A stretch of DNA of 64,000 bases from Chitinophaga niabensis (lineage in GTDB: Bacteria; Bacteroidota; Bacteroidia; Chitinophagales; Chitinophagaceae). The DNA lies in the NCBI GenBank assembly GCA_017849435.1, contig JAFIGY010000014.1, positions 62,001 to 126,000 of the forward strand, read 5' to 3'. Below are positions 1,393-38,007 of the stretch, piece by piece. The notes beneath the pieces were generated by a model. It was not told the DNA's origin. It searched no databases and saw only the letters and a program-made list of their open reading frames with translations. How positions within the stretch are numbered: position 1 is the stretch's first letter; each line of letters opens with the position of its first letter. A program made the position numbers and the translations under genes.

Positions 1393-1628
1393 GCAGATGG
1401 ATTTGGCTGATCTGGGGATACGTAAGTGCCCGGTTAATGGTTGCTCGTTGCAGGATACTGTCAGGTTACATGATCCTTGTAAATGTAGCATTCCTTTGCA
1501 TACGCCGCGCGGGATTTTTTACATGTATTTAATGTTTAATGCGATTGGAACTGCGTATGAAGGTTCTGCTGAAATTATCCATCCGGAATATTATTTTTGA
1601 GAGAAGACCCGCTTTTATTCTTTTTTGT

Positions 1629-3146
1629 ATGACAAGCCTGAAACGCATATTGATTCTTTTGGCCTTCCTCGGTACATTCCGGGTGCAGGCGCAGAACCGT
1701 CCGAACATCGTGTTGTTCCTGGTGGACGACATGGGCTGGCAGGATACCAGCGAACCTTTCTGGACGCAACTAACGGAGCTGAATAAACGATATCATACGC
1801 CGAATATGGAACGCCTTGCCAAACGCGGCATGAAGTTCACAGATGCGTATGCCACGCCTGTTTGTACGCCCACGCGGGTGAGCCTGATGACGGGCATGAA
1901 CGCCACGCGGCATAAGGTGACCAACTGGACGAACTACGAACGGGATCAGCGTTCTGATTATAAAGATTCCACGATGTTGCAGGAAGACTGGAACTGGAAC
2001 GGACTAAGCCCTCTCCCCAACGTTCCCCACACCATCCATGCAACCCCGTTACCACAGGTGTTGAAGAATGCCGGCTATTACACCATCCACTGCGGCAAAG
2101 CGCACTATGCCTCCAACGGTACTCCCGGCGCGGATCCCCTGAACATGGGCTATGATGTGAACATAGCGGGCCATGCGGCAGGGCACCCGGCGAGCTATCT
2201 GCCGGAGAAGAAGTACGGGGCGGCCAGTGCTTCGCATGGGGTACCCGGACTCGAGGAATTTTACGGAACGGATGTGTTCCTCACCGAAGCCCTCACCCGC
2301 AAAGCCCTTGCAGCGCTTGTCAAGCCCGTGGCCGATAAAAAACCGTTCTTCCTCTATATGGCGCACTATGCCGTGCATGTGCCGCTGGAAGCGGATAAAC
2401 GGTTTTATCAACGTTATATGGAGAAAGGTCTGGAACCGAATGAAGCGAAGTATGCAGCGCTTATCGAAGGAATGGATAAAAGTCTGGGAGATATTATGGA
2501 TTACCTGGACCAGCATCAACTCACACAAAATACCGTCATCCTTTTCATGTCAGACAATGGCGGCCTGAGCCTGTCGCCTCCCCGCGCGAAACCCGCGCAT
2601 ACGCAGAACCTCCCGCTAAAGGCCGGTAAAGGTTCTGTATATGAAGGCGGCATCCGGGAACCGATGATCGTGAGCTGGCCGGGTGTGGTGAAAGCGGGCA
2701 GTGTAACGGCGCAACCCGTGATCATTGAAGATTTCTTTCCTACCCTGCTGGAAATGGCCGGTGTGAAGAAGCCCCGCATCCTGCAAAGAACAGATGGAAA
2801 AAGTTTTGTGCCGGTGCTGAAAGACGCCGCAGGGAAAGATACAACGAGGGTACTGGTATGGCATTATCCGCATCGCTGGACTCCGGGCGAAGGACCCGGC
2901 CTGCATTTTTTCTCCGCTGTCCGGAAAGGCAACTGGAAGCTGGTTTACAACCAGCGCACAGAGCGGGTATATCTGTATGATCTGAGAACAGATATCGGGG
3001 AGGAGCATGATCTGGCAACCAGCTATCCTGCCAAAGCCAAAGAGCTGGCCATGGCGTTAACAGCGTACCTGAAAGAGCGCGGTGAGAAGATGCCGTTGCA
3101 TGAGCCTTCCGGAAAACCGGTAGCATGGCCGGATGCGACACTTTAA
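1629..3146 (+). CDS. Formylglycine-dependent sulfatase (S1 family)
   Basis: 505 residues, exported. The ATG at 1629 is preferred over an in-frame ATG at 1539 because it starts a clean signal peptide (residues 1-22, ending VQAQ). Metal-ligand Asp33-Asp34 follow in LVDDMGW. The sulfatase signature CTPTR is at 79-83, and its Cys79 is the residue oxidised to formylglycine in this family. Further family marks are SDNGG and the C-terminal YEGGIREP block. The usual GKWH block reads GKAHYA, so the catalytic Lys and His are kept while the Trp is replaced. The substrate is probably a sulfated sugar released from a polysaccharide, as it sits at the head of a locus with two more sulfatases and a PL8 lyase. 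Its last 4 bases overlap the end of the convergent receiver gene. Confidence 0.93.
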   Translation: MTSLKRILILLAFLGTFRVQAQNRPNIVLFLVDDMGWQDTSEPFWTQLTELNKRYHTPNMERLAKRGMKFTDAYATPVCTPTRVSLMTGMNATRHKVTNWTNYERDQRSDYKDSTMLQEDWNWNGLSPLPNVPHTIHATPLPQVLKNAGYYTIHCGKAHYASNGTPGADPLNMGYDVNIAGHAAGHPASYLPEKKYGAASASHGVPGLEEFYGTDVFLTEALTRKALAALVKPVADKKPFFLYMAHYAVHVPLEADKRFYQRYMEKGLEPNEAKYAALIEGMDKSLGDIMDYLDQHQLTQNTVILFMSDNGGLSLSPPRAKPAHTQNLPLKAGKGSVYEGGIREPMIVSWPGVVKAGSVTAQPVIIEDFFPTLLEMAGVKKPRILQRTDGKSFVPVLKDAAGKDTTRVLVWHYPHRWTPGEGPGLHFFSAVRKGNWKLVYNQRTERVYLYDLRTDIGEEHDLATSYPAKAKELAMALTAYLKERGEKMPLHEPSGKPVAWPDATL

Positions 3147-3538
3147 CTGGCGGCAGGGAACAGGAGGCCGTGCAGCAGACCTACGAGCTCGGAGAATTTC
3201 TCGGGTTTGGAAATGAAATCATGTGCGCCCAGTTGCTTCGTTTCTTCGATGGTGCGGTTGTCTGATGCTGTGGAGTAAATGATCACGGGAATGTCTTTCA
3301 GTCGTTCCGTAGCCTTCACTTCCCGCAGGAATTGTACGCCGTTCATCATTGGCATGTTGAGGTCAAGGAAAATAAGATCGGGGAGAAGGGCCATGTCTTT
3401 CAGCTGCATGATACCTTCGTAACCATTCGGGGCGATGTTGCACACAATGGAATTGTCTATGAATGCCAGTGCAGAAGTGAATATCTCCTGATCATCCATA
3501 TCATCATCTATCAACAATATTGTGGGTATACTAAACAT
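3143..3538 (-). CDS. Single-domain response regulator (CheY/Rcp1-like)
   Basis: 131 residues consisting only of a receiver domain. The acidic pocket is DDD at 11-13, the phospho-acceptor is Asp59 in FLDLNMP, the switch Thr/Ser lies in IIYSTAS, and the conserved Lys is Lys111 in ISKP. There is no output domain, so it must act by protein contact or as a phosphate shuttle. The spacing and the insert between strand 2 and helix 2 resemble Rcp1-type regulators that work with bacteriophytochrome or hybrid kinases. No kinase is adjacent. The gene is convergent with the upstream sulfatase, with stop codons overlapping by 4 bases. Whether it serves this locus is unknown. Confidence 0.9.
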   Translation of the reverse strand: MFSIPTILLIDDDMDDQEIFTSALAFIDNSIVCNIAPNGYEGIMQLKDMALLPDLIFLDLNMPMMNGVQFLREVKATERLKDIPVIIYSTASDNRTIEETKQLGAHDFISKPEKFSELVGLLHGLLFPAAS

Positions 3539-3703
3539 AATTCAAATAGTAAAATAATTGCATGTATCGACGGTCGTGCTATTGTGCCAGGGTAACAAGC
3601 GAATGTCAAGATAGTCAATTTGTGCCATCCTTTCGTGTATTTTAGAAAAAATAAAAAGGAATTAGCAGTAAGATTGCATTCCGCTTGCTAAAAAGATATT
3701 ATA

Positions 3704-5221
3704 ATGAAACGATTACTCTTTGTTGCGCTGGCAGGGATGCTGATCCAGTCTGCATTTGCGCAGAAAAAGCCAAATGTGGTGATCATTTATGCCGATGATC
3801 TGGGATATGGGGACCTGAGTTGTTACGGGGCTACAAAAGTTCGGACCCCGAACATTGACCGGCTGGCGAAGGAAGGCGTCCGTTTTACAAACGGGCATTG
3901 TACTTCCGCCACCTGCACGCCTTCCCGTTACGCCCTCATCACAGGCCGCTATCCCTGGCGGCAGACCGGCACCGGCGTACTGCCGGGCGATGCGAAACTG
4001 ATTGTGCCGATGGATAAGGGGTCTGTTGCTTCCATGATGAAGAAGGCCGGTTACCGGACCGCACAGGTGGGAAAATGGCATCTGGGACTGGGAGATGGAA
4101 AGGAGATCGACTGGAACGGTGAAGTGAAACCCTCGCCGAATGAGGTGGGATTCGATTATTCGTTTTGTTTTCCCGCTACAGCGGACCGTGTTCCAACGGT
4201 TTTTGTGGAAGATCACAAGGTATTGGGGTTGGACAGGAACGACCCGATCACCGTCAACTACAAACAAAAAGTGGGCGATGACCCTACCGGCAGGGAACAT
4301 CCGGAATTACTGAAAATGCAATCGTCCCCAGGTCAGGGCCACGATAACACCATCGTGAACGGCATCGGTCGTATCGGTTATATGAAAGGTGGTCACAAGG
4401 CCCGCTGGACAGATGAAGAGCTTGCTTATGTGTTCACGGACCGCGCTGAGCAGTTCATCGAAGACAACCGTCAACGCCCTTTCTTCCTGTACTTCTGCCT
4501 GAGCGATATTCATGTGCCGCGGATGCCCGGTACTCCGTTCAAGGGTAAAAGCGGACTGGGATACAGGGGAGATGCGATCCTGCAGATGGACTGGACGGTG
4601 GGCCGTATTATGCAGAAGCTGAAAAGTCTTGGTTTGGATAAGAACACCCTCGTTCTTTTCACCAGCGACAATGGTCCAGTGCTGGACGATGGCTACCAGG
4701 ATGAAGCGGTCACTCAGCTGAACGGTCACCAGCCCGCCGGCCCGCTCCGCGGCGGTAAATACAGCGCTTTCGAAGGTGGCACCCGCGTGCCTTTCATCGT
4801 AAGCTGGCCGGGCGCTGTCAAAGGCAACCAGACGTCGGATGCGCTTGTTTGCCAGATAGATCTCTTTGCTTCTTTTGCCAGGCTTACCGGTCAGCAACTG
4901 GCGGATGATGATGCGCCTGACAGCTTTGACGTAATGGATGCATTGCTCGGGAAATCCCCTAAAGGCCGCGCCTGGCTCATTCAGCAGGGAGGCCCTTTAT
5001 CGCTCGTAAAAGGTGATCTGAAATACATCGTGCCGTCAAAAGGCCCGAAACTTCTTTCCGGTGTGAACATCGAATCCGGTCACGATCCGGAGCCGCAATT
5101 GTATGATCTGAAAAAAGATATCGGGGAGCAGCATAATATTGCAGCGCAATACCCGGAAAAAGTAAAAGCAATGGCAGACGAATTGCAGCGCCTGAAAGCT
5201 GCGGATAAAACCAGAAAATAA
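3704..5221 (+). CDS. Arylsulfatase-type sulfatase (S1 family)
   Basis: 505 residues with a signal peptide at 1-19 (ending SAFAQ). The calcium-binding Asp pair is in YADDLGYGD, and the formylglycine signature CTPSR is followed by YALITGR. The blocks GKWHLGLG, FTSDNGP and FEGGTRVPF are all intact, so it should be an active hydrolase of sulfate esters once its Cys is converted to formylglycine. It works in the periplasm or on the surface. The exact sugar and sulfate position cannot be read from motifs alone. It is followed after 8 bases by another sulfatase, so the two are surely co-transcribed. The 165-base gap before it holds no promoter I can defend. Confidence 0.94.
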   Translation: MKRLLFVALAGMLIQSAFAQKKPNVVIIYADDLGYGDLSCYGATKVRTPNIDRLAKEGVRFTNGHCTSATCTPSRYALITGRYPWRQTGTGVLPGDAKLIVPMDKGSVASMMKKAGYRTAQVGKWHLGLGDGKEIDWNGEVKPSPNEVGFDYSFCFPATADRVPTVFVEDHKVLGLDRNDPITVNYKQKVGDDPTGREHPELLKMQSSPGQGHDNTIVNGIGRIGYMKGGHKARWTDEELAYVFTDRAEQFIEDNRQRPFFLYFCLSDIHVPRMPGTPFKGKSGLGYRGDAILQMDWTVGRIMQKLKSLGLDKNTLVLFTSDNGPVLDDGYQDEAVTQLNGHQPAGPLRGGKYSAFEGGTRVPFIVSWPGAVKGNQTSDALVCQIDLFASFARLTGQQLADDDAPDSFDVMDALLGKSPKGRAWLIQQGGPLSLVKGDLKYIVPSKGPKLLSGVNIESGHDPEPQLYDLKKDIGEQHNIAAQYPEKVKAMADELQRLKAADKTRK

Positions 5222-5229
5222 ATCGACAC

Positions 5230-6747
5230 ATGCGTTACATCCTGTTCCTCTTCCTGATCATCGGTCATCTTCCTTCACAGGCACAACAAAAAGGGAAGCG
5301 GCCGAACATTGTGATCATCGTTTCAGATGACCACGCTTTTCAAGCCATCAGCGCTTATGGCGGCAAGCTGATGCAAACGCCCAACATCGACCGGCTGGCG
5401 AAAGAAGGCGGTATCTTTAACAAAGCCTACGTTACCAACTCCCTGTGCGGCCCGAGCCGCGCTACCATTCTCACGGGGAAGTACAGCCACAAGAACGGTT
5501 TCAAAGACAACCGCTCTTCTTTTGACGGCAGCCAGGATAACTTCGCCAAAAGATTGCAGGCCGGCGGTTACCAAACGGCATGGATCGGGAAATGGCACCT
5601 GGAAACAGAGCCGCAGGGGTTTGACTACTGGCAGGTATTGCCGGGGCAGGGTGCTTATTATAATCCCGACTTTCTCGTAGCCGGTAAAAAGATCCGGAAG
5701 GAAGGATATGTTACCAATCTCATTTCCGATGCTGCGGAACAATGGCTGGACGGGCGGGATGCCTCCAAACCCTTCTGCCTCGTGATCGGCCACAAGGCCA
5801 CGCACCGCAACTGGCTGCCTGACACTACGGACCTTGGCCGTTTCGATAACAGCACATTCCCGCTGCCGGCCAACTTCTATGATACCTATGAAGGTCGCGC
5901 TGCCGCACAGCATCAGGATATGACCATCGCTAAAACCATGCAACTGGCATCCGATCTGAAGATGCTGCCTGACAGCGGTTTTCGCAAAGGTGAGTTTTCC
6001 CGCATGAATGCTGCACAGCGTGCGAAATTTGAAGCATATTACAAACCCATCATCGCAAAATTCCGCGCCGCGGGCCTGAAAGGGAACGCGCTTACGGAAT
6101 GGAAATATCAACGCTACCTCAAAGATTACCTGAGCACTGCCGCTGCGCTGGACCGGAATATCGGTCGCATCCTTCATTACCTCGATGCACATCAGTTGAG
6201 CCGGAACACGCTGGTGATCTATCTTTCCGATCAGGGTTTTTATATGGGAGAGCACGGCTGGTTCGACAAGCGGTTTATGTATGAGGAGTCTTTCCGCACG
6301 CCGATGGTGATCCGCTATCCCGGTGTTGTGAAGCCCGGCAGCAGGATCAACGGTATGGTCATGAACCTGGATATTGCGCCCACCTGTCTGGAAGTGGCCG
6401 GAGTGCCTGTGCCCGGGGACGTTCAGGGGAAATCATTCCTTTCGCTGTTGAAGAATCCCTCCGGCAGTATCCGGAAATCCATGTACTATCACTACTATGA
6501 AATGGCCGAGCATTCCGTGTGGCCGCATTTCGGGATACGTACGCAGCAATATAAGCTCATCCGTTTTTACCAGGAAGGCGAAAAATGGGAGCTTTTCGAT
6601 CTGCTAAAAGATCCTTCCGAGATGCATAATGTTTACGGGCAGAAAGGATACGAACAAATCACCGTTAAATTGAAGGAAGAACTGAAGGGATTGATCAGGG
6701 AGTATGAGGACGAGGAGGCGATGCAAATATTCAATAAAGAGATTTAG
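5230..6747 (+). CDS. Sulfatase, N-acetylglucosamine-6-sulfatase-like (S1_11-like)
   Basis: 505 residues with a signal peptide at 1-19 (ending SQAQ). The N-terminal metal block reads VSDDHAFQAISAYGG and the formylglycine signature is CGPSR inside NSLCGPSRATILTGK. This combination (SDDH...Q.ISAYG, NSLC.PSRA.ILTGK) is, from memory, typical of the S1_11 / GlcNAc-6-O-sulfatase group that removes 6-sulfate from glucosamine in mucin, keratan or heparan sugars. The subgroup call is inference. IGKWHLE and LSDQGFYMGEHGWFDK are intact. It is the last gene of the two-sulfatase operon and ends just before a strong terminator. Confidence 0.93.
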   Translation: MRYILFLFLIIGHLPSQAQQKGKRPNIVIIVSDDHAFQAISAYGGKLMQTPNIDRLAKEGGIFNKAYVTNSLCGPSRATILTGKYSHKNGFKDNRSSFDGSQDNFAKRLQAGGYQTAWIGKWHLETEPQGFDYWQVLPGQGAYYNPDFLVAGKKIRKEGYVTNLISDAAEQWLDGRDASKPFCLVIGHKATHRNWLPDTTDLGRFDNSTFPLPANFYDTYEGRAAAQHQDMTIAKTMQLASDLKMLPDSGFRKGEFSRMNAAQRAKFEAYYKPIIAKFRAAGLKGNALTEWKYQRYLKDYLSTAAALDRNIGRILHYLDAHQLSRNTLVIYLSDQGFYMGEHGWFDKRFMYEESFRTPMVIRYPGVVKPGSRINGMVMNLDIAPTCLEVAGVPVPGDVQGKSFLSLLKNPSGSIRKSMYYHYYEMAEHSVWPHFGIRTQQYKLIRFYQEGEKWELFDLLKDPSEMHNVYGQKGYEQITVKLKEELKGLIREYEDEEAMQIFNKEI

Positions 6748-6750
6748 CTT

Positions 6751-6785
6751 AAAGGGCACTTCACGCGGAAGTGCCCTTTTTCTTT
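6751..6785 (+). terminator. Rho-independent terminator after the sulfatase operon
   Basis: A perfect 12-bp stem (AAAGGGCACTTC at 6751-6762, GAAGTGCCCTTT at 6768-6779) with a 5-base loop, followed by a T-rich tract. It starts 3 bases after the sulfatase stop codon. Confidence 0.9.
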
Positions 6786-6824
6786 TTACCCCCAGCCGGA
6801 TGTTCATCCGTTCCGCGCCGTAGA

Positions 6825-6866
6825 TTAGAATTCTCTCATCTCAACATTAGAATCTTCTAATAACCA
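6825..6866. promoter_or_regulatory. TTCTAA-motif cluster upstream of the OmpR-type regulator
   Basis: Two minus-strand TTCTAAT elements (seen as ATTAGAA on the plus strand; TTAGA cores at 6825 and 6847) lie exactly 22 bases apart, and a plus-strand TTCTAATAACC lies at 6855-6865. The same hexamer forms the 11-bp array at 8960-9014. This suggests the regulator encoded at 6911 controls its own operon; the link is inference. Confidence 0.5.
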
Positions 6867-6910
6867 ATGAAATAGGAAGAGATGCCCTAATTTAGCCCCA
6901 GATTGAGATT

Positions 6911-7585
6911 ATGAACATTTTATTGATTGAAGACGAACCCCGTGTTGTAACGCTCATAAAGAAAGGATTGGAAGTTCATGAGCACCAGGTGACGGTCGCT
7001 TATGACGGGCAGGATGGATGCCACGCAGCGATGCAGCATGATTATGATCTGGTGATCCTGGATGTGTTATTGCCGTCGCTGAACGGACTGGAAGTATGTC
7101 AACGGATCAAGGCTTTTAAAAAAGGGTTGCCGGTATTGATGCTGACGGCGCTGGGCACCGTGCGGGACAAAGTGATGGGCTTCGAATGCGGAGCGGATGA
7201 TTATATGCCCAAGCCCTTTCACCTCGATGAACTGCTGGCGCGCATCAAAGCCCTCGGCCGCAGGAGCCAGACCGTTTCCCCCACTGCCGTTTACCGGGTG
7301 GCGGACCTGGAAATGGACTGCTACAAACGAAGCGTGTCAAGGGGAGGGAAGGAGATCGTGCTGACCGTGAAAGAATTCGCGCTGCTGGAAGTACTGATCA
7401 CGAACAAGAACCGCGTACTGTCAAGGGCCTTCATGGCGGAAACGGTATGGGGCATAGATTTCAACAGGGGAACCAATCTCATCGATGTATATATCAATTA
7501 CCTGCGCGCAAAAATAGACAAAGGATTTTCCCACCCGTTGATACATACGGTTATCGGTGTGGGGTATGTATTGAAGGAACAATGA
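6911..7585 (+). CDS. OmpR/PhoB-family DNA-binding response regulator
   Basis: 224 residues. The receiver domain is at about 1-118, with acidic residues Glu7/Asp8, phospho-acceptor Asp51 in VILDVLLP, and Lys101 in YMPKPF. A winged-helix trans_reg_C domain at about 128-222 ends VIGVGYVLKE. It resembles CusR-type regulators of Bacteroidota. The sensor kinase gene follows after 10 bases, so the two form one operon. Both flanks carry copies of a TTCTAA motif, and downstream of the kinase there is a five-copy 11-bp array before susC. Members of this family bind tandem 11-bp direct repeats, so the adjacent SusC/SusD operon is the likely target. Confidence 0.95.
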   Translation: MNILLIEDEPRVVTLIKKGLEVHEHQVTVAYDGQDGCHAAMQHDYDLVILDVLLPSLNGLEVCQRIKAFKKGLPVLMLTALGTVRDKVMGFECGADDYMPKPFHLDELLARIKALGRRSQTVSPTAVYRVADLEMDCYKRSVSRGGKEIVLTVKEFALLEVLITNKNRVLSRAFMAETVWGIDFNRGTNLIDVYINYLRAKIDKGFSHPLIHTVIGVGYVLKEQ

Positions 7586-7595
7586 ATATCGGAGT

Positions 7596-8945
7596 ATGAC
7601 GGTAAGGAACAGGTTGTCGCTGCAATTCACTTTCCTGTTTGCGGTGTTGCTTTTCATTCTGCTGGCAGGAATCTACTCGCTGGTAGAACGGAACCGACGG
7701 ATCAATTTTTATGAAAAGCTGGACGACCGGGCTATGACAGTAGCACAATTCTATCTGGCGGAAGATAATTTGTCGGAAGAAGGTTTCATGGCAGTGCTGA
7801 AGAAGTATCCCCGCTCACTCAATCAGGAAGTGATCAGGATCTACAATCGTCGGTTTGAACCTGTTTTTATCCGGGAAGATTCCTTACGATGGAGTAAAGA
7901 AATATTGCAGCGGGCCGTGACGGAAAAGAAACTGCATTTCACCTGGCAGGGGCAGCAGGCTTCGGCGATCTATTATGTGGATAATTCGGGTGATTTCATC
8001 ATCATCGCCACAGCGCTGGATGCAGCAGGCATGGAGAGCGTCCGGCAATTGGGATGGATCATGCTGGTGGCCTTCCTGGTATCGCTGCTGATCACTTACA
8101 TGCTGGGCCGTATTTTCTCGAGGATGGCGTTAACACCCATTAACCGGGTGATCGCCAATGTGAAGATCATTCGGGCCACGAGCCTTGACAGCCGCCTGCA
8201 GGTCAGCAGCAGAAAGCATGATGAGATCGATGAACTCTGCGTGACCATCAACAATCTGCTGGAACATCTGGAACAGTCGTTCGAATCGCAGCGCGCTTTC
8301 ATCGCCAACGCATCCCATGAACTGCGCACGCCCATAGCAGCCATCATGGGAGAAGCAGAGATCGCACTGTTGCAAAACAGGGATACGGAAGAGTATAAAG
8401 TCACGTTGCAGAATGTGGTGGAAGATTCGGCACGACTGACCAGCCTCATCAACAGTCTGCTGGAGCTGGCCCAGGCAAACATGGACAATAACGATTTGCA
8501 ACTCATATGCATGAACGAACTCCTTTGGGAGGTTGTGGATGAATGGAGCAATGGCGGCAAATACCCGGTCAAGCTCATCTTCAGTTTCGGAACAGACGTA
8601 ACGAAAGTGACGATGCCGGGTAACCGCCATTTGCTTTTTCTGGCGCTGGGCAATGTAGTGAAGAATGCGATCAAATTCTCCAACGGCGCTGCGGTACATT
8701 GTGAGTTGAACTATACCGGTAACCAGATCATCATCCTGATCAAAGATCAGGGCATCGGCATTCCCGCCGATGAAAAAGATAAAATATTCAGACCTTTTTA
8801 CAGGAGCGCCAACGCCATCAGGTTTGACGGTTTCGGCATTGGCCTCTCTCTGACGGAAAAAATTATCCGTTTGCACAATGGCACGATTGAAGTACAATCG
8901 GAGCCCGGTGTTGGTACTACTTTCAGGTTTGTATTCCCCCGTTAA
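7596..8945 (+). CDS. Sensor histidine kinase (HAMP, HisKA, HATPase)
   Basis: 449 residues in the inner membrane. Transmembrane helix 1 is at about 8-28 and helix 2 at about 148-171, enclosing a sensor loop of roughly 120 residues in the periplasm. A HAMP linker is at about 172-225. The dimerisation/phospho-acceptor helix has His241 in ASHELRTPIAA. The ATP-binding domain carries the N box (VVKNAIKF), DQGIGIP and GFGIGLSL. It should phosphorylate the regulator encoded 10 bases upstream. The signal is not evident; the position next to SusC/SusD and sulfatases suggests a sugar- or envelope-linked cue. The gene starts at the ATG just after the regulator stop. Confidence 0.95.
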   Translation: MTVRNRLSLQFTFLFAVLLFILLAGIYSLVERNRRINFYEKLDDRAMTVAQFYLAEDNLSEEGFMAVLKKYPRSLNQEVIRIYNRRFEPVFIREDSLRWSKEILQRAVTEKKLHFTWQGQQASAIYYVDNSGDFIIIATALDAAGMESVRQLGWIMLVAFLVSLLITYMLGRIFSRMALTPINRVIANVKIIRATSLDSRLQVSSRKHDEIDELCVTINNLLEHLEQSFESQRAFIANASHELRTPIAAIMGEAEIALLQNRDTEEYKVTLQNVVEDSARLTSLINSLLELAQANMDNNDLQLICMNELLWEVVDEWSNGGKYPVKLIFSFGTDVTKVTMPGNRHLLFLALGNVVKNAIKFSNGAAVHCELNYTGNQIIILIKDQGIGIPADEKDKIFRPFYRSANAIRFDGFGIGLSLTEKIIRLHNGTIEVQSEPGVGTTFRFVFPR

Positions 8946-8959
8946 TGCACATTAAATTT

Positions 8960-9014
8960 TTCTAACAGGTTTCTAACTGGTTCTCAACCTGCCTCTAAAT
9001 ATCCTCTAATAGGC
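8960..9014. repeat. Five tandem 11-bp direct repeats, probable response-regulator binding array
   Basis: Five 11-mers abut without gaps: TTCTAACAGGT (8960), TTCTAACTGGT (8971), TCTCAACCTGC (8982), CTCTAAATATC (8993) and CTCTAATAGGC (9004). The central AA pair recurs at 8964, 8975, 8986, 8997 and 9008, an exact 11-base period. The array ends 6 bases before a TAGCTTTG -7 box of the susC promoter. OmpR/PhoB-type regulators bind 11-bp direct repeats, and one is encoded just upstream. Confidence 0.75.
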
Positions 9015-9020
9015 CCCTCC

Positions 9021-9028
9021 TAGCTTTG
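9021..9028 (+). promoter_or_regulatory. Bacteroidota -7 box (TAGCTTTG) of the susC operon
   Basis: A perfect match to the TAnnTTTG consensus, 34 bases before the susC start codon. No good -33 TTG element is present at the usual distance; that region is filled by the 11-bp array, as expected for an activator-dependent promoter. Confidence 0.6.
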
Positions 9029-9062
9029 CATTGATAAATAAAGACCTGTTAAAATCATTTTT

Positions 9063-12000
9063 ATGCAATTGAAATCTATCTTTTTATGGATGGGCCTGAT
9101 GATGCTCGCCGTTATTTCCCGCGCGCAGGAAAGGCTGGTCAAAGGCACCGTTACAGATTCCCTGTCAAAACAACCGCTGATCGGCGTGTCCGTTGCCGTA
9201 AAAGGCACAAAGACCGGCGTCGTTACAGATGTGAATGGCAACTATGCTGTTCAGGTGCCGGCACATGGAACGGCGCTTGTGTTTTCGTATGTGGGTTACA
9301 GTGATCAGGTGGTTGCACTTACATCGGGCAGCAATGTGGTGGATGTAACGCTTGCTGCGGCATCCAAATCCTTGTCTGGTGTGATCATCACGGGATACAC
9401 CAGCCAGAGCAAGGCCAGAACTACCGGGGCTGTTACCAGTCTCCCCGTAGCGGTTACCACGCAGGCGCCGGTGGGATCATTTGACGTCATGCTGCAAGGG
9501 CGTGCTCCCGGATTGTACGTGGGAACGCCCACCGGTCAGCCCGGTGAGCCCGGCCGTGTTTCCATTCGCGGCCTCGGTTCCATTAACGGGGATGTGATGC
9601 CCCTGTACGTGGTAGATGGTGTGCCCATTGCCAATAATTCATTCGCAGCGTTGAACCCTGAAGATTTTGAAACGATCCACGTGCTGAAAGATGCAGCTTC
9701 CACTGCACAGTACGGTTCCCGTGCCGCCAACGGCGTGATTATGCTGACCACCAAAAAAGGGAAAGCATGGGAAGACGGGAAAGTGCGCGTGAATTATCGC
9801 GCCCAGTTCGGTGTATCTGCTGTCAACAGTTCCAAGTGGGACATGATGAATACATCGGAACGCCTTCGCTTTGAAGAGATATTACAGGATCCGGGATTGC
9901 CGGGATGGGCTTATTCCCGGAATAATCCGAATAAACTTGTAAATGGCACTTTGGTGCCTAAGACAACAGATGATTTTGCTTTCGGGGATCGTTACCTTGA
10001 CAGTCTTCGCGCAATTAATACGGACTGGCGGAAGTACCTGCTGCGGCAGGGACACATGCAGTCGCATAACCTCAATTTGTCCGGCGGAAATGAAAACACC
10101 ACCTTCTATCTGTCCGGCGCTTACTTTAAACAGGAGGGGATTGCGCTCAACTCCGGTCTTGAGCGATACAGTCTGCGTGCGAACATCCAGAACCGCGCCG
10201 GTCGTTTCCGGTCTACGCTGAACATGGGAATATCCTCTGCGGCTGTCAGGTATATACAGGATGAGGGTGTTGCGTCAGACGGAGGTGCGGCTACCGGTGG
10301 TGGTGGTATCACGGAAAAGAACCCGATCGCGGCTTTGTATTATGCGCTGCCTTATGAATCGCCTTATGGAATGCCCGGCCTTGGCCATTATGGGGCGAAT
10401 GCACTGAATACATATGCCAATACCCTGAAGAAAGATAACCAGTTGAAAGGCGTGATGTCATTCAATGAAACAATACAGCTGAATGATGTTTTGCAATTGA
10501 CAGGCACCGTTGGGATGGACTTTCAACAAACCACTGCTACCAACTATCTCAACCCCGATTCCTGGTACGGACAAATGGTGAGCAATGGTAACCAGGGTTC
10601 TTTGCAGAAGGGAGTGGCCAACCGACTGGGACTGGTAGCTACCGGCGGAGTGCGTTATAACAGGCAGTGGAAAAATGGTAATGAGATAGAAGCTAACCTG
10701 CTGGCGGAAGTGAACAAGATCAAAGGAGACGGCTTCGGGTTTACCGGATATGGTCTTGTTCCGGAGTTGCCGAAAACACCGGCGGGTATCACGCCCGGTT
10801 CGCCGGACAATAATTTCATTCCGGATATCTATGGGAATACTACGCCCAATCGTTTATTGATCTCACAGATCGCGTTGTTCCGGTATTCTCACGGTGACAG
10901 ATACACGCTGTCTGCCAGCCTGCGCCGTGATGGCTCTTCGCAGGTGCCCGCGCAGAACCGGTATAAGTACTTTTACGCGTTGGGGGGCAGCTGGAATTTG
11001 CTGGCCGAGGAGTTCATGAAAGGCAGCCATGCTTTCAGCACATTGCGGCTGCGCGCCAGTTACGGTCTCACGGGTAATGCGGGCGGATTTACAAGCGACT
11101 ATGGGTTCAGGACCTTATACGGACCTTCTTATTACAGCGGCCGCAAAGCGTTGATACCGCAAACGCCCGGTAATCCCGCTTATAACTGGGAGATGAACCG
11201 CATCGGTGATGTTGGGCTGGAGTTCGGTTTCTTCCGCAACCGCCTCCGTGGTGAAATAGATGTATATAACCGCGTGACGGAAGGATTGTTCGTTAACCGT
11301 AACCTCTCGCTCACCACCGGCTTCCCCGTAATGGCCGCCAATGCCGGCAAGGTACGGAACCGCGGTGTGGAACTGATGCTCGAAGGAGATGCGATCCGGC
11401 AAAAAGATCTGAAGCTGACGTTTGGTTTGAACCTCGCATATAACAAGAATAAAGTATTGAGCCTTGGTGAGGAAAAACAGCTCTTCACGGATGAAGCGAC
11501 CATGAACCTCACAGGTCTTCCGCTGGGAAGCTTTTACGCCGTGCGCTGGAAGGGAGTGGACCCGCAGACCGGAGCGCCTGTTTATCTCGACAAAGATGGA
11601 AAGGAAACTAATGTCTATAGTACCGATGATGCAGTGCCTTTGAAAGCCACTTACGATCCTCCGTTGATCGGCGGTGTCACGACAAGTTTGACGTACAAAC
11701 GCTTCGAGTTTTCCATGCTGGTGAGTTTCATCCGCGGTATGTATCGCCTGAACTACCCGAACCTGTATGCGCATTCCGGAAGCCCCAACTACCGCCAGTA
11801 CAGCCAGTCGAAAGACATGCTCAACATCTGGCAGAAACCGGGAGATATCAGTGATTATCCCGGAGCACAGTATGCTACGCACTTTACCTCCCGCGATGTG
11901 ATGAGCGCGGATTATGTAAAGCTCCGCAACATAACGGTCGGGTATAACATTCCCGTACCCCGTGGTATGACGAAAGCCATTCGCAACGCGAAAGTATTTG

Positions 12001-12128
12001 CAAGCGGACAAAACCTGTTGTCTATCATGAAATGGCGAGGGTTTGATCCGGAAGATGCCAATGATATCGCCCAGTATGAGTATCCCATGCCCCGCACCAT
12101 TGCCGGTGGTATCAGTGTTTCATTCTAA
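9063..12128 (+). CDS. SusC-like TonB-dependent outer-membrane transporter
   Basis: 1021 residues with a signal peptide at 1-21 (ending ISRAQ). A CarboxypepD_reg-like domain at about 26-100 (GTVTDSLSKQPLIGVSV) is followed by the plug domain with IRGLGSI, PLYVVDGVPI and the SusC hallmark YGSRAANGVI. The rest is a beta-barrel ending in aromatic SVSF. There is no N-terminal STN domain, so signalling to an anti-sigma factor is not expected. It imports oligosaccharides across the outer membrane together with the SusD lipoprotein 21 bases downstream. Upstream lies the 11-bp array, so control by the neighbouring two-component system is likely. The substrate is inferred from the locus to be a uronic-acid polysaccharide fragment. 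Confidence 0.96.
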   Translation: MQLKSIFLWMGLMMLAVISRAQERLVKGTVTDSLSKQPLIGVSVAVKGTKTGVVTDVNGNYAVQVPAHGTALVFSYVGYSDQVVALTSGSNVVDVTLAAASKSLSGVIITGYTSQSKARTTGAVTSLPVAVTTQAPVGSFDVMLQGRAPGLYVGTPTGQPGEPGRVSIRGLGSINGDVMPLYVVDGVPIANNSFAALNPEDFETIHVLKDAASTAQYGSRAANGVIMLTTKKGKAWEDGKVRVNYRAQFGVSAVNSSKWDMMNTSERLRFEEILQDPGLPGWAYSRNNPNKLVNGTLVPKTTDDFAFGDRYLDSLRAINTDWRKYLLRQGHMQSHNLNLSGGNENTTFYLSGAYFKQEGIALNSGLERYSLRANIQNRAGRFRSTLNMGISSAAVRYIQDEGVASDGGAATGGGGITEKNPIAALYYALPYESPYGMPGLGHYGANALNTYANTLKKDNQLKGVMSFNETIQLNDVLQLTGTVGMDFQQTTATNYLNPDSWYGQMVSNGNQGSLQKGVANRLGLVATGGVRYNRQWKNGNEIEANLLAEVNKIKGDGFGFTGYGLVPELPKTPAGITPGSPDNNFIPDIYGNTTPNRLLISQIALFRYSHGDRYTLSASLRRDGSSQVPAQNRYKYFYALGGSWNLLAEEFMKGSHAFSTLRLRASYGLTGNAGGFTSDYGFRTLYGPSYYSGRKALIPQTPGNPAYNWEMNRIGDVGLEFGFFRNRLRGEIDVYNRVTEGLFVNRNLSLTTGFPVMAANAGKVRNRGVELMLEGDAIRQKDLKLTFGLNLAYNKNKVLSLGEEKQLFTDEATMNLTGLPLGSFYAVRWKGVDPQTGAPVYLDKDGKETNVYSTDDAVPLKATYDPPLIGGVTTSLTYKRFEFSMLVSFIRGMYRLNYPNLYAHSGSPNYRQYSQSKDMLNIWQKPGDISDYPGAQYATHFTSRDVMSADYVKLRNITVGYNIPVPRGMTKAIRNAKVFASGQNLLSIMKWRGFDPEDANDIAQYEYPMPRTIAGGISVSF

Positions 12129-12149
12129 AAACAAGACAAACCGCTTTTT

Positions 12150-13589
12150 ATGATCCTTCCTACTTTCAAGAAACTGGCATTAGCGCTTGGCGCAATGACC
12201 ATCATATACAGTGTTTCATCCTGCAATAAAATGCTGGACGTGAAACCGACCGACCAGGTGGATGGGAGTGAAATATTCAACTCCATCAGCACCGTAAACA
12301 AAGCCGTATTGGGCGTATATGCCGACTGGCAAACAGAATACATGCTCCGCATCGGATCCGTGATGGCAGACGAGTGCAGGATCGGCCTTAGGAACGCAGG
12401 TGTGAACGGTTCTGCGCAAAACCTTTTCAGATGGAGGTATGCCGCCGGCGATGCAGAGATCTCCGCACCCTGGGTCAATGCCTACCAGGTGATCAATCGT
12501 GCTAACAGGATACTGGAAGGCATTGACAAGGTTCCGGCTGATAACGAGGCCGACGTAAAAGCGCGCGCACAACTTAAAGGCGAGCTGCTGGCTATCCGTG
12601 CATTTGAACATTTCGAGCTTTACCGCGGCTTCAGTTTTTCCGGTGTTTATAACGCTGAAGCCTGGGCAGTGCCTTATGTTACGAGCACCGATATCAGCAA
12701 TAAACCAGCCAGACCCACATCTGCAGCATTCTTCCAGGCGCTCGGCAAAGACATTGAAACCGCTGTGCCGTTAATGGAGAATGAAGATAATAAGGATGTT
12801 ACAAGGATGAACATCCTCGCCCTATACGCCCTCCAGTCACGCGTAGCGCTCTACACCGGCAACTGGCAGACCGCCGTGGAAAGCGCCACCAGGGCGATCG
12901 GGAAAGTACCGCTGGCCGGCAGGGACGAGTTCCCCAATATCTGGACGGACCAGGGCAATGCGGAAGTGCTTTTCAGGCTCCGGAGAACGAACCAGAGCAC
13001 CTTACGCCCCGGCGATATCTGGCGCAACGGCACATTGGGCATCTACTATTTTGCACCCTCCCTGAAATTGCTTGCCGCGTACGATCAGCAGAACGACGTC
13101 CGCTACGCCAGCTATTTTTATAATGATCCTTCCCTTGCCGCCGGCGGGCAGCTGACCGATGTGATCGGGAAATATGCCGGCACGCAGGGCGCCGTTAACC
13201 TGAACGATGTAAAAGTATTCCGCATCGCAGAGATGTACCTGATCCGTGCGGAAGCGTACCAGCACCTGGGCCGCCTTGAAGATGGCTCCGCGGATCTGAA
13301 TATACTGCGAAGCGCCCGGATCAACGGATATGTGCCAAAGATTTACACCGATGGTGCAAAGCTGCTGAACGCTATACTCACGGAGCGTTTCCGGGAACTG
13401 CCCTTTGAAGGGCACCGCTACTTCGACCTGAAGCGGCTGGGTCTTCCCGTAACGCGCCTTGCTGCCGATCTGCAACAGGGCGATACCCAAACAGACCTGG
13501 CGTTTACGGATCAATATTACTATCTGCCTGTTCCGCAGGCAGAAACACTCGCTAACCCGAACATTAAACCCAATAACCAAGGTTGGTAG
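12150..13589 (+). CDS. SusD/RagB-like surface glycan-binding lipoprotein
   Basis: 479 residues. The lipoprotein signal has a lipobox Cys in VSSCNKMLD, and the downstream DVKPTDQ is typical of SusD N-termini. The TPR-like helical core includes RANRILEGIDKV and RAQLKGELLAIRAFEHFEL, and the C-terminal RFRELPFEGHRYFDLKRLG and PNIKPNNQGW mark the RagB/SusD fold. It caps the SusC barrel encoded 21 bases upstream and binds the glycan at the cell surface. It is the last gene of the operon and is followed by a terminator. Confidence 0.96.
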   Translation: MILPTFKKLALALGAMTIIYSVSSCNKMLDVKPTDQVDGSEIFNSISTVNKAVLGVYADWQTEYMLRIGSVMADECRIGLRNAGVNGSAQNLFRWRYAAGDAEISAPWVNAYQVINRANRILEGIDKVPADNEADVKARAQLKGELLAIRAFEHFELYRGFSFSGVYNAEAWAVPYVTSTDISNKPARPTSAAFFQALGKDIETAVPLMENEDNKDVTRMNILALYALQSRVALYTGNWQTAVESATRAIGKVPLAGRDEFPNIWTDQGNAEVLFRLRRTNQSTLRPGDIWRNGTLGIYYFAPSLKLLAAYDQQNDVRYASYFYNDPSLAAGGQLTDVIGKYAGTQGAVNLNDVKVFRIAEMYLIRAEAYQHLGRLEDGSADLNILRSARINGYVPKIYTDGAKLLNAILTERFRELPFEGHRYFDLKRLGLPVTRLAADLQQGDTQTDLAFTDQYYYLPVPQAETLANPNIKPNNQGW

Positions 13590-13655
13590 GCGCTCCGGAT
13601 CTCCGGAGGGCAGATGAATAAAGCGGACGTCCACAGTCCGCGAGCATGCACCCTG

Positions 13656-13690
13656 AAGCGGATGACTTAACCGGTCATCCGCTTTTTATT
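13656..13690 (+). terminator. Rho-independent terminator after susD
   Basis: An 11-bp perfect stem (AAGCGGATGAC at 13656-13666, GTCATCCGCTT at 13674-13684) with a 7-base loop, followed by a TTTATTTT tract. It separates the SusC/SusD operon from the lyase gene. Confidence 0.9.
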
Positions 13691-13721
13691 TTCATATCAA
13701 TTCCCTAAATTGAGGAAGTTT

Positions 13722-13735
13722 TGCAAACGTTTGCA
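13722..13735. promoter_or_regulatory. 14-bp perfect palindrome, LacI/GalR-type operator
   Basis: TGCAAACGTTTGCA is a perfect palindrome with the central ACGT typical of LacI/GalR-family operators. It lies 56 bases before the lyase start codon and after the terminator of the preceding operon. No LacI-family gene is present in the window, so the regulator would act in trans. Confidence 0.6.
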
Positions 13736-13791
13736 TAGTGTCGCGATTTTTACCACGTTCGTACCTATTTATTCATCTCAATCCTCATCCA

Positions 13792-16700
13792 ATGAGAAAA
13801 TTAATGCTACTCCTCGCACTGTTTGCCTTCTTTCACTCCCATCTGCAGGCCCAGGCCACGGAATATACGCTGATCATGGATCGCGTCCGGGCGGATCAGC
13901 AGGCCTCCGTTTCCGGGAATATCTCTTCCCTCGATAATGGCGTGACCACCAACCTGGCCTCCCTGCAGAATGACGGATCCTGGGCGGACATCAGCTATGC
14001 CTACAGTGCTACCTCCTACACTGCGGACACACATCTGGCCCGCGTGAAGAACTTTGCACTGGCGTATTCCCTGCCCACCAGCAGCTACTACAGCAACGAC
14101 ACGCTTTTTCAGGCGATCATTCAAAGCCTTGCATATTGGAACCAGGCCGATCCGCAAAGCTGGAACTGGTATCATAACCAGATATCCAATCCGCAGCGCC
14201 TCGGCGAGATCATGATCGTGCTGTATCCCGGTCCGCAATTGCTGCCGGATACGCTGAAGAATAAACTCCTCACCCAGATGAACCGTGGCAACCCCGCCGC
14301 GCAAACAGGTGCCAACAAACTGGATGTAGCTACCCACTTCATCTACCGCGCCTGCCTCACCGCCAACGCCAGCCTGATGCAAACGGGCGTTACAGAGGCT
14401 TTTAATCCTATTTCCTACACAACGGCGGAAGGTATTCAGCATGATCTTTCCTATCAGCAACATGGTGCTCAATTATACATTTTTGGTTACGGCTCCGTAC
14501 TGGTGAGCGGCGAGATCAATATAGCCACTTACCTGCAAGGCACTTCCTACGCTCTTAGTGGAACGAAACTGACGCTGCTGGCGGATTTTGTGCGGAAGGG
14601 GTTCCTGGCGCCAATCCGCGGCCGGAACATCGATTTCAGCGTGAACGGTCGCAGTATCAGTCGTACCAACAATCTCAGTCAGGGTGGCATATGGGGACTG
14701 ATCTCGAAGATGAAAGCGCTGGACAGCGCGAACAGTGCAGCATACGATCAGGCAATTGCCCGCCTGCGCGCGCAGCAACCACCTTCTTACATGATAACGC
14801 CCGGTCACACACAGTTCTGGCGTTCGGATTACACGGTACATCACCGGAGCAATTATTTCTTCGGGTTGAGGAATGTATCTACCCGTACGGCTAAATCGGA
14901 AAATGGGAATGGCGAGAACCTGAAAGGATATTATTTATCAGATGGCGCTACCAATACGATGGTAAGCGGACTGGAATACGATAACATCTTCCCGATATGG
15001 GACTGGAGCAGGATCCCCGGCACCACAGTCCCCTACATCACAACGTTCCCTTTGCGCACGGCCTGGGGCGTGAACATGGGCACTGCGGCTTTTGTTGGAG
15101 GCGCTTCGGATTCCCTGTACGGAGTTTCCACTTATGCCATGAATGATTACAGTACCACGGCAAAGAAATCGTGGTTCTTCTTCGATGATGAAGTAGTTTG
15201 TTTGGGCGCAGGGATCACCTCTACCGCTTCACAGGCGATCAATACCACCGTGGAGCAAAATCTGAAGAACGGCGCGGTGACGGTGTCTGCGAATGGCACG
15301 ACAGACACGGTGGCTACAGGCTCCTATACCTACAACAACCTGAAATGGATATGGCACAATAACATCGGATATTATTTCCCGTCCGGCGGCAATCTCGCAC
15401 TCAGCACGCAAACGCAAACAGGCAACTGGAAGAGCATCAACACCGGCGGCAGCACTACCAACATTACGAAGAATGTGTTCAAACTCTGGGTGGATCATGG
15501 AACACAACCTTCCAACGCGAGTTATGCCTACTATGTACTTCCCGGTAAAGCGCTGGCAGACGTGCAGCAGTACGACACTTCGGCCATCCGCATCCTTGCC
15601 AATACCAGCGCCGTACAGGCCGTTAAACATAAGGGTCTGAATATCCGGCAGATGGTGTTCTTCCAGGCAGGCACTTACACCTACGATTCCGTGACGATCA
15701 CGGTGGATCATCCCTGTGCGATGATATTGAAGAATATCGGCAGTAGTAATGTGCAGGTGAGTATTGCAGATCCGGCGCAGGCTTTCAGCCAGATCAATGT
15801 TTACCTGACGCTGCCGGGCATTGATTCCGTGCGGTTGCTCTCCTGCTCCATGCCCACCGGTCCCTATGCAGGAAGCACCGTGGTATATACCGTGAACAGC
15901 ACTACACCGGTCTATCGTCCGGAGGGTATCCTGCCTGTGGCGGATTCCTACGTTCGGGACGGCAGTTATGCGAATGATAACTATGGGGGACAAAGTATAC
16001 TGACGGTGAAAGCAGACGGTACCGGCTATACGCGGGAGACCTTTCTGAAATTCGATCTTTCCGGTTTAACCGGCAGCTACGTAGCCGCGAAACTGCGCCT
16101 GACCATTTCCGGCGCCAATACGGACGCCGGCACCACCTCCTGGAACGTTCATTATCTCAGTAACGACAGCTGGACGGAGACAGGGCTTACCTGGAATAAC
16201 AAACCGGCCACAGGCGCACTGCTGGCCACACAGCCAGGCCGTACCAGCGGCGTGGTGGAGTGGGATATCAGCCAGCAGGTGATCTCCGAGCTGGCAGGCG
16301 ATAAAATACTTTCCCTCCGGGTGTCTTCTACTACTGCCGGCGCCAAAACAGATGCTTCCTTTTATTCCCGCGAAGCCAGCGTGCAGGCATCCGCACCGCG
16401 GCTGATCCTGGAAACTTCCCGCAGCACTACCGCCATTGCAGATGCATACGTACGCAACGGTACTTACGGAAATACCAACTACGGCTCCGTTACCTCGCTT
16501 GTGCTGAAGAAAGACGGGGACGGTTACGCGCGGGAAGCTTTCGTGAAGTTTGATGTAAGTAATGTACCGCCCTTAGCGGACACAGTGAAGATGCGGATCT
16601 ATGTGAACTACGCGAATACAGATATTGCCACCACGGGCTGGTCGCTGTATTTCGTGAATAACGACAGCTGGACGGAGAGCGGCATCACCTGGAATAACAT

Positions 16701-17208: not shown

Positions 17209-17215
17209 AGGAGGT

Positions 17216-34491: not shown

Positions 34492-34515
34492 CTTTATATC
34501 GATTTAAAGATTGCA

Positions 34516-37839: not shown

Positions 37840-38007
37840 AATTTTCCATTGACGTGTTAATGAATAGGAAATCCCTTTCACGAGGGGAACCGTAAATTTT
37901 CCGAAAGTTGACATCCACGGGGAATGTGTGCGCATTTCCCGTTTTTGTGACCATATGTTGGCAGTGGTTACGATGTATTCATGTGCAGCGTAATTTGTAT
38001 CAATTTT

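What the first reader, a model, noticed from the sequence alone, without database searches (positions are those of the whole stretch)
8960..9014. Five-copy 11-bp repeat array before susC, next to an OmpR-type regulator
Five contiguous 11-mers with consensus (T/C)TCTAAcNGGt and exact 11-base phasing fill the activator region of a TAGCTTTG promoter. The same TTCTAA element occurs three times upstream of the regulator operon (6825-6866). OmpR/PhoB-family regulators bind 11-bp direct repeats, so this looks like a dedicated, autoregulated two-component switch for a SusC/SusD pair, separate from the hybrid regulator of the same locus.
Basis: partly seen in the sequence, partly recalled or inferred. 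Interest (0 to 1): 0.72.

Follow-up and report, generated by a model that had tools for sequence, protein, structure and literature searches.

The report
Shared operator for SusC/D and efflux
A row of evenly spaced 11-base repeats in front of a nutrient-importer gene is very probably the landing strip of the neighbouring two-component regulator, and the same landing strip marks a heavy-metal-type efflux pump in this and related bacteria, so the importer looks like part of an import/efflux regulon rather than a simple sugar-uptake switch.

Summary
The array at 8960-9014 is real and beyond chance (0 of 2000 shuffles). It belongs to a larger, rigid operator: an inverted half-site (8951-8959), five 11-bp positions (the third degenerate), 6 nt, then the -7 element TAGCTTTG (9021-9028). 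All 11 SusC promoters whose SusD is at least 49% identical to the window's have units in 11-bp register with TAnnTTTG. The regulator is CusR/CopR-like (below that family's cut-off); before its operon stands a palindrome (6846-6861), within 3 mismatches in 21 of 24 regulator promoters. In Pedobacter and three family genomes the same regulator-kinase pair precedes a CusA/CzcA-type efflux operon. In the window's genome an unlinked efflux operon, orthologous to the linked one of those family genomes, carries the exact palindrome; ATTARANNNTTCTAAY has three sites in 5.0 Mb: regulator, SusC, efflux. Regulator-kinase-SusC-SusD lies between terminator-like hairpins and has other neighbours elsewhere, so it is probably not part of the chondroitinase locus. 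Best reading: an autoregulated two-component module activating a SusC/D importer and an efflux pump. Binding, signal, sign and substrate are untested.

The parts
6751..6779 (+). terminator-like hairpin (12 pairs) after the last sulfatase gene; left border of the cassette
   Evidence: the number of terminator-like hits in the region is not above shuffles (6 against a mean of 7.6), but this and the one at 13655 have the longest stems of the six
6825..6830 (-). outer single half-site (TTAGAA), 22 bp upstream of the palindrome's first half
6846..6861 (.). palindrome ATTAGAATCTTCTAAT (6-4-6), presumed autoregulatory operator
   Evidence: at most 3 mismatches of 15 in 21 of 24 regulator promoters (window included); exact TTAGAANNTTCTAA at only 2 places in the genome
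6888..6895 (+). -7-like element TAATTTAG of the regulator operon (one mismatch to TAnnTTTG)
   Evidence: a TAnnTTT stands 42-44 nt after the palindrome start in 15 of 24 regulator promoters; here TAATTTAG starts at +42
6911..7585 (+). OmpR/CusR-type response regulator
   Evidence: Response_reg, Trans_reg_C; best NCBIfam TIGR01387 cztR_silR_copR, 238.5 bits, below its cut-off 279.2
7596..8945 (+). sensor histidine kinase
   Evidence: best NCBIfam TIGR01386 cztS_silS_copS, 181.2 bits, below its cut-off 292.55
8951..8959 (-). inverted half-site (ATTAAATTT) that makes an imperfect palindrome with unit 1 (8951-8966)
   Evidence: taken alone this imperfect palindrome is matched by 7 of 500 shuffles
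8960..8970 (+). array unit 1 TTCTAACAGGT
8971..8981 (+). array unit 2 TTCTAACTGGT
8982..8992 (+). array unit 3 TCTCAACCTGC, degenerate and not conserved in the genus
8993..9003 (+). array unit 4 CTCTAAATATC
9004..9014 (+). array unit 5 CTCTAATAGGC
9021..9028 (+). -7 element TAGCTTTG, 6 nt after unit 5
   Evidence: TAnnTTTG starts exactly 70 nt after the palindrome start in 16 of 25 target promoters
9063..12128 (+). SusC/RagA-type TonB-linked transporter
   Evidence: TIGR04056, 663.8 bits, cut-off 368.25; closest solved relative RagA 6sli
12150..13589 (+). SusD-type lipoprotein
   Evidence: SusD_RagB, SusD-like_3
13655..13685 (+). terminator-like hairpin (13 pairs) between susD and the PL8 gene; right border of the cassette

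Best explanation
The array is the operator of the adjacent CusR/CopR-like response regulator. Shown: the sequence, its rigid layout (inverted half-site, 11-bp phased units, 6 nt, TAnnTTTG), its conservation with the regulator and with two target types, and the palindrome before the regulator operon. Inferred: the phosphorylated regulator binds the palindromic pair (inverted half plus unit 1) and further molecules line up head-to-tail on the same DNA face along units 2, 4 and 5 down to RNA polymerase, activating transcription; the palindrome alone serves autoregulation. Targets in this genome are the adjacent susC-susD operon and an unlinked CusA/CzcA-type RND efflux operon, so the module couples a SusC/D importer to an efflux pump under one membrane-bound sensor kinase.
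For: Array beyond chance. YTAAY pairs at 11 bp in 19 promoters of the ortholog group: 31 against a shuffle mean of 0.36, maximum 3 in 200. All 11 SusC promoters whose SusD is at least 49% identical have 2-5 matching units in register with TAnnTTTG (frame ending 6 nt before it): 10 by script, each with 0 of 500 shuffles as good, and G437 by reading. 12 of 17 efflux promoters also show it (L011, L013 and G123 with 2 units only; L011 matched by 2 of 500 shuffles, the others by none). Loci were chosen by protein homology, not by motif. Palindrome before the regulator within 3 mismatches in 21 of 24. In the own genome ATTARANNNTTCTAAY lies only at regulator, SusC and the contig-18 efflux operon, reversed control 0; in G011 exact ATTAGAATNTTCTAA lies only at regulator and SusC. 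The contig-18 pump is 79-81% identical to the regulator-linked pumps of G123, G252 and G437 and groups with them at 100/100. Its operon's orthologs in G016 and G022, unlinked too, keep the palindrome (2 mismatches of 15) and in-register units. SusC of two Pedobacter genomes, on another contig than the regulator, has the layout. SusD orthologs (E 1e-100): 5 of 394 family genomes, all 5 among the 8 with the regulator ortholog (E 1e-90; P 7e-10, ignoring relatedness).
Against: No binding or expression data. A paralogous two-component system of the same genome (contig 8, 58-59% identical) uses nearly the same half-site, so its regulator could bind here. The contig-18, G016 and G022 efflux promoters, and those of G437 and G252, have no TAnnTTTG at the expected place, and on contig 18 the units after the palindrome are out of the array's register. 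The Pedobacter linked pump is a different RND lineage (57-58% to the contig-18 pump; closer to pumps of the paralog group, 71-75%; its own-genome nearest by pump is contig 14, 67%, which has no palindrome), so 'efflux' as a target is not one orthologous operon. Exceptions: L012 (Puia) has the regulator palindrome but no array before its neighbouring TonB receptor; the unlinked efflux operon of G274 has no palindrome (5 mismatches at best); regulator promoters of G252, G426 and one of G123 have 4-6 mismatches; next genes of G426 and G163 have no array. ATTARANNNTTCTAAY was shaped after seeing the three sites, so only its specificity is informative; in two Pedobacter genomes it hit the regulator promoter plus one unexamined place each, with control hits of 2 and 3. 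ATTAGAATNTTCTAA found nothing in G016 and only two one-mismatch places in G022, whose palindromes differ. The window's SusC palindrome alone is matched by 7 of 500 shuffles. At the regulator promoter the palindrome is in a different register to the -7 element than the array, so autoregulation could be of either sign.
Confidence: 0.72

Rival explanations
1. One reading: a dedicated switch for a glycan-importing SusC/SusD pair of this glycosaminoglycan locus, with the efflux link incidental.
For: The cassette lies between three sulfatases and a PL8 lyase, beside a hybrid regulator; SusC/D pairs usually import glycans or peptides (recalled); sulfatase-domain genes are near the cassette in two of seven genomes (the window's and G123), a glycoside hydrolase in G123 and a GH95 gene in G022.
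Against: Terminator-like hairpins on both sides; no match to the window's PL8, sulfatases or (beyond kinase and receiver domains) hybrid regulator in the stretches read around the cassette in G011, G016 and G022; no enzyme type common to the seven genomes whose flanks were scanned, not every flanking gene being scanned. The regulator type, the kinase sensor domain (41-55% identical between the window and ten efflux-linked kinases, about as their kinase parts, 46-53%) and an efflux operon share the control.
Confidence: 0.2
2. The array is bound mainly by the paralogous regulator of the contig-8 efflux system, or by both (cross-regulation).
For: The paralog's own target has four units of the same half-site and its recognition helix differs little. 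CusR, CopR and CzcR of Pseudomonas share one palindrome (PMC11195947, passages).
Against: Layouts differ: 14 of 18 paralog-group promoters have four direct units with a 6-nt spacer, none of the 14 with the inverted half-site, while the window's group has inverted half plus five positions; the layout follows the regulator ortholog group across genera.
Confidence: 0.15
3. Same operator, opposite sign: the regulator activates efflux and represses susC-susD to close an entry route under stress.
For: Efflux up and porin down is a known logic in other bacteria (recalled). A stress-type regulator over an outer-membrane importer would fit.
Against: The frame ends at the same 6 nt from TAnnTTTG in 12 of 17 efflux and in all 11 SusC promoters; the same geometry suggests the same sign. 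The efflux promoter of this very genome lacks that geometry, so this argument rests on relatives.
Confidence: 0.15
4. Chance or a structural repeat without regulatory role.
For: Short AT-rich units; another window site reaches the same consensus-free score.
Against: Conserved layout in promoters chosen by protein homology, across genera.
Confidence: 0.02

Closest known systems
AgrR box of Cupriavidus metallidurans (OmpR-family, silver resistance; PMC7380067, passages read)
   Same: 16-bp inverted repeat 6-4-6 (ATKACANNNNTGTMAT; [quoted passage not shown] both kinds of repeat contribute to activation; positive autoregulation proposed.
   Different: There an extra direct repeat up- and/or downstream at some operators; here up to five positions at 11 bp with fixed distance to a Bacteroidota -7 element, and a SusC/SusD target.
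CusR palindrome of E. coli AAAATGACAAnnTTGTCATTTT (PMC11195947, passages read)
   Same: CusR-type regulator, palindrome of the same geometry between cusRS and cusC(F)BA; very restricted regulon.
   Different: Half-site sequence, the added direct array, and the importer as a second target.
PHO box of PhoB/PhoP (two 11-nt direct repeat units; simple and complex operators in Streptomyces; PMC4415409, passages read)
   Same: 11-bp direct repeats as regulator sites.
   Different: Palindromic first pair, degenerate third unit, other regulator subfamily.
Regulators of Bacteroides polysaccharide loci (SusR, HTCS, ECF sigma/anti-sigma; PMC3878776, passages read)
   Same: Control of SusC/SusD pairs.
   Different: Three Bacteroidetes-specific types are named there (and 11 regulators of other families); the term OmpR does not occur in its main text, and HTCS motifs have two sites on average 21 bp apart.

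Membership tests
CusR/CopR/CzcR heavy-metal response regulators | scores above the TIGR01387 cut-off | tested here: not met
   238.5 bits against 279.2; still the best-scoring of 96 NCBIfam matches (25 shown). So CusR-like, not filed as a member.
CusR/CopR/CzcR heavy-metal response regulators | 16-bp 6-4-6 palindromic operator at the regulator promoter | tested here: met
   ATTAGAATCTTCTAAT at 6846-6861; 21 of 24 regulator promoters within 3 mismatches. The geometry is met; binding is not shown.
CusR/CopR/CzcR heavy-metal response regulators | control of a heavy-metal-type RND operon | tested here: inconclusive
   Adjacent efflux operons in 11 of 12 named close relatives (L002-L011, L013, not L012) and in G123, G252, G437; pumps scanned are all above the CusA/CzcA cut-off of 701.45: contig 18 844.5, G437 866.2, L003 950.6, G252 861.8, G123 861.7. 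In this genome the operon is unlinked and control is not shown.
CusR/CopR/CzcR heavy-metal response regulators | metal-responsive kinase | not testable with these tools
   No His or Cys column of the sensor domain is shared by half of the 19 kinases aligned, which gives no support for a simple metal site
PhoB-type 11-bp direct-repeat operators | direct repeats of 11 bp in phase next to the promoter | tested here: met
PhoB-type 11-bp direct-repeat operators | head-to-tail binding by the phosphorylated regulator | not testable with these tools
   needs footprints or a structure
SusC/SusD pairs | SusC/RagA signature and SusD domains in tandem | tested here: met
Polysaccharide utilization locus member | shared transcription unit or conserved neighbourhood with glycan enzymes | tested here: not met
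   terminator-like hairpin before PL8; no enzyme type common to the flanks of G011, G016, G022, G235, G274, G123 and the window, though sulfatase-domain genes occur in two of the seven. Transcription itself not measured.

The most novel reading that the evidence does not exclude
A conserved Bacteroidota regulon in which one CusR-like two-component system drives both CusA/CzcA-type efflux pumps (of two different pump lineages) and a SusC/SusD importer through a composite operator, with paralogous systems in one cell kept apart by the number and orientation of an almost identical half-site rather than by its sequence; the importer would then serve metal or toxicant homeostasis (for instance uptake of a chelate or peptide) rather than glycan feeding.
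Probability: 0.3. Interest if true: 0.72.

Novelty: new variant of a known kind. Interest (0 to 1): 0.52.

Why it matters
If right, some SusC/SusD pairs, usually read as food importers, belong to efflux-type regulons, which changes how such pairs should be annotated and what substrates to test. The strict layout also gives a testable case of regulator insulation by operator arrangement between two paralogous two-component systems of one genome. In nine literature searches (open-licence PMC papers only; listings seen, and passages of seven papers) I found no description of this operator or of a CusR-like system over SusC/SusD.

Tried and rejected
Considered and rejected: chance (shuffles and conservation); a purely local polysaccharide switch (hairpins, varied neighbours); direct repeats at the regulator promoter (it is a palindrome); a simple one-way history from efflux to SusC/D: in the regulator tree the five genus members form a 100/100 clade inside a 99/98 group of 24, but SusC/D linkage also occurs elsewhere in that group and G437 has both targets in one locus, so an ancestral double regulon is as likely. 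My first view that the contig-18 efflux operon is the ortholog of the Pedobacter linked operon was dropped on checking: by outer-membrane factor it is the best own match (46% against 41% for contig 14), but by pump it belongs with G123, G252 and G437 and the Pedobacter pump is another lineage.

Tried without use: SusC/SusD relatives at 36-42% identity in seven loci of named relatives (L223-L229) were meant as controls, but the stretch I cut was not their promoter (their SusC has an extra N-terminal part), so they were dropped. The first layout count for the paralog group missed arrays that overlap the kinase gene and was repeated with more upstream sequence and spacers 5-7 allowed. Structure prediction and fold search were not used. 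The Flavobacterium coevolution paper (PMC10197871, passages), the iron-stimulon paper (PMC10434189, passages) and a copper-signalling review (PMC10141476, passages) gave nothing decisive.

Rows dropped before counts: the column table uses the 16 promoters that have TAnnTTTG at +70, so its -7 columns are conserved by construction, and the palindrome was placed by best match; four near copies were then left out (12 rows). Pair counts use 19 of the target promoters for the same reason. 19 of 24 regulator promoters and 11 target promoters went into the shuffle test. G437 SusC is counted by eye because the called start cut off its -7 element.

Full report
Observation. Only period 11 stands out in the gap between kinase and susC (score 25 of 30, periods 8-10 and 12-15 give 16-19), and no shuffle of 2000 reaches it. 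The -7 element TAGCTTTG is at 9021-9028. That TAnnTTTG is the Bacteroidota -7 element is recalled; a search counted 16 papers that hold the term (listing only).

The real element is larger. Aligning promoters of orthologous loci shows an inverted half-site ATTARANNN directly before unit 1, so that the first 16 bp form a palindrome with 6-4-6 geometry, then positions at 11-bp steps, 6 nt, and TAnnTTTG. TAnnTTTG starts exactly 70 nt after the palindrome start in 16 of 25 target promoters, while the distance from the kinase stop codon to the palindrome runs from about 5 nt (window) to about 160 nt (G011). In the 12 non-redundant rows (chosen for TAnnTTTG at +70) the TAA of units 1 and 2 is invariant, unit 4 nearly so, unit 5 strong, unit 3 weak. 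In all five SusC promoters of the window's genus unit 3 is degenerate, and in three of them (G016, G022, G235) unit 5 is weak too. G274 and L004, L007, L008, L009, L010 keep all five.

Regulator promoter. The palindrome has at most 3 mismatches of 15 in 21 of 24 regulator promoters (exceptions G252, G426 and one of two in G123) and lies 63-71 nt before the start codon in 19 of 24. Of 19 of these promoters tested against 500 shuffles each, 12 had 3 or fewer shuffles as good; weaker ones were G274 (6), L013 (9), G163 (17), L002 (19), G123b (39), G252 (61) and G426 (491). Of 11 target promoters in the same test, 8 had 0 or 1; the window's SusC had 7, G274 SusC 11 and G252 efflux 139.

Who is the regulator? 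It is an OmpR-type protein whose best NCBIfam model is TIGR01387 (CopR/SilR/CztR), below the cut-off; the kinase likewise fits TIGR01386 best, below its cut-off. Among 59 genomes (own and relatives) three others of the genus have a close ortholog (G011 84%, G016 73%, G022 72%), and G235 adds a fifth species (74%). Named relatives are Pedobacter records (65-69%), a Sphingobacteriales bin (66%), a Puia bin (64%) and a Bacteroidetes bin (62%); four more hits are below 48%.

Two kinds of targets. In the five genus members the order is regulator, kinase, SusC, SusD; in G011, G016 and G022 SusC is 77-79% and SusD 61-66% identical to the window's. G274 has the same order. In 11 of the 12 named close relatives (L002-L011, L013; not L012) the kinase is followed by outer-membrane factor, adaptor and RND pump genes (in L009 a gene without Pfam match comes first), likewise in G123, G252 and G437. 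G437 holds both in one locus: regulator, kinase, efflux operon, a frame without Pfam match, a second regulator, SusC, SusD. In the window's genome the exact palindrome was found at one more place, 117 nt upstream of an efflux operon on contig 18; with one mismatch allowed there are 6 places, control 4. Its pump is 79-81% identical to the regulator-linked pumps of G123, G252 and G437 and forms a 100/100 clade with them; all pumps scanned from the group exceed the CusA/CzcA cut-off (closest solved relative of the contig-18 pump is ZneA 4k0e). The Pedobacter linked pump is another lineage, closer to pumps of a paralogous regulator group. So the operator and regulator stay together while the efflux partner has changed.

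The contig-18 operon has close orthologs in G022 (outer-membrane factor 79%) and G016 (77%), also on another contig than the regulator, which carry the palindrome with 2 mismatches and two matching units in register; the two sequences are near copies and count as one observation. G011 and G235 lack a close ortholog, and G274 has one (56%) without the palindrome. These unlinked efflux promoters lack TAnnTTTG at the expected place, which I cannot explain. Conversely, three genomes of named relatives have SusC/SusD (SusD 51-54%) on another contig than the regulator: G457 keeps the half-site, units 2 and 5 and the exact spacing, G454 a shorter version with the 6-nt spacer, and G456 a phased array before a second regulator that precedes SusC. 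Of the other genomes in that search, G449, G450, G252, G426, G163, G458 and G459 have no SusD at E 1e-60, and G451, G452, G453 and G455 have only 38-41% relatives. In 394 family genomes SusD orthologs occur in 5, all among the 8 with the regulator ortholog (hypergeometric 7e-10, which ignores relatedness).

Specificity. In 5.0 Mb ATTARANNNTTCTAAY matches only the regulator, SusC and contig-18 efflux promoters; the reversed control matches nothing. The pattern was shaped after those sites were known, so this shows specificity only, and in two Pedobacter genomes it is no better than its control (2 places each against 2 and 3 control hits). In G011 (8.1 Mb) exact ATTAGAATNTTCTAA lies only at the regulator and SusC. 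A paralogous group of regulators (52-59% identical), all 18 followed by RND operons, uses the same half-site in another layout: 14 of 18 promoters have four direct units and a 6-nt spacer to CAnnTTTG or CAnnTTTA (CATCTTTG in 11), none of the 14 with the inverted half. One member is in this genome (contig 8). Further regulator groups use other 11-mers, for example TTCTTACC (L114, L122, L132, L135).

Locus context. The three upstream sulfatases, the PL8 chondroitinase-AC-like lyase, the hybrid regulator and a second SusC/SusD pair form a glycosaminoglycan-type locus. The cassette is bordered by terminator-like hairpins at 6751-6779 and 13655-13685. In other genomes it sits beside an AMP-binding NRPS-type gene and GH95 (G022), an NRPS-type gene and a TonB receptor (G016), DUF4397 (G011), MFS and FecR (G235), DUF2961 (G274) or a sulfatase and a glycoside hydrolase (G123). 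Sulfatase genes thus occur beside it twice in seven, which keeps the glycan reading alive, but no enzyme is common to all.

Mechanism. Sensor domains of the window's kinase and of ten efflux-linked kinases are 41-55% identical, kinase parts 46-53%, which suggests one kind of signal. No His or Cys column is shared by half of the 19, so I do not assume a metal. The closest worked-out precedent is AgrR, which needs both its inverted and its direct repeats for activation (PMC7380067, passages). I propose binding first at the palindrome and then in line down to RNA polymerase; equal spacing at most efflux and SusC promoters argues for the same sign, activation. Binding, sign, signal and the substrate of SusC/D are not shown. 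SusC's closest solved relative is RagA, a peptide importer by recall, which is a hint and no more.

Verdict. It is a new variant of known OmpR-family operators.

Noticed in passing
window 1539-28904: Glycosaminoglycan-type locus: three sulfatases, PL8 chondroitinase-AC-like lyase with CBM96 and a T9SS tail, a hybrid two-component regulator, a second SusC/SusD pair, DUF5017 and GH88 genes.
   Followed up: partly
window 13738-13794: The PL8 frame opens at GTG 13738, but an in-frame ATG at 13792 is a likelier start.
   Followed up: no
window 32992-41564: Another SusC/SusD pair with FecR and ECF sigma factor, and a second sigma-like protein with DUF6596.
   Followed up: no
L174 (G437), 134-17843: One locus with regulator, kinase, efflux operon, a frame without Pfam match, a second regulator (52%), SusC, SusD and a second RND pump gene on the other strand.
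   Followed up: partly
L009, 8036-9904: A 543-aa frame without Pfam match stands between kinase and efflux operon in Pedobacter panaciterrae, and both it and the efflux operon have an 11-bp phased array.
   Followed up: partly
L114, L122, L132, L135: Regulators of the wider group whose downstream gap carries 11-bp repeats of TTCTTACC; the recognition-helix region has K where the window's protein has N at one position; next genes of L114 include a bestrophin-like protein.
   Followed up: no
G000 contig 9 end and contig 18 start: Fragments of a regulator gene lie at two contig ends (residues 109-223 and 2-114), so the assembly may break inside one gene.
   Followed up: no
G000:C18:108237-108252: The contig-18 efflux promoter has the exact palindrome but its further AT-rich units are out of register and no TAnnTTTG follows.
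   Followed up: partly
L117: A cation-transporting P-type ATPase gene stands behind one regulator-kinase pair of the wider group.
   Followed up: no
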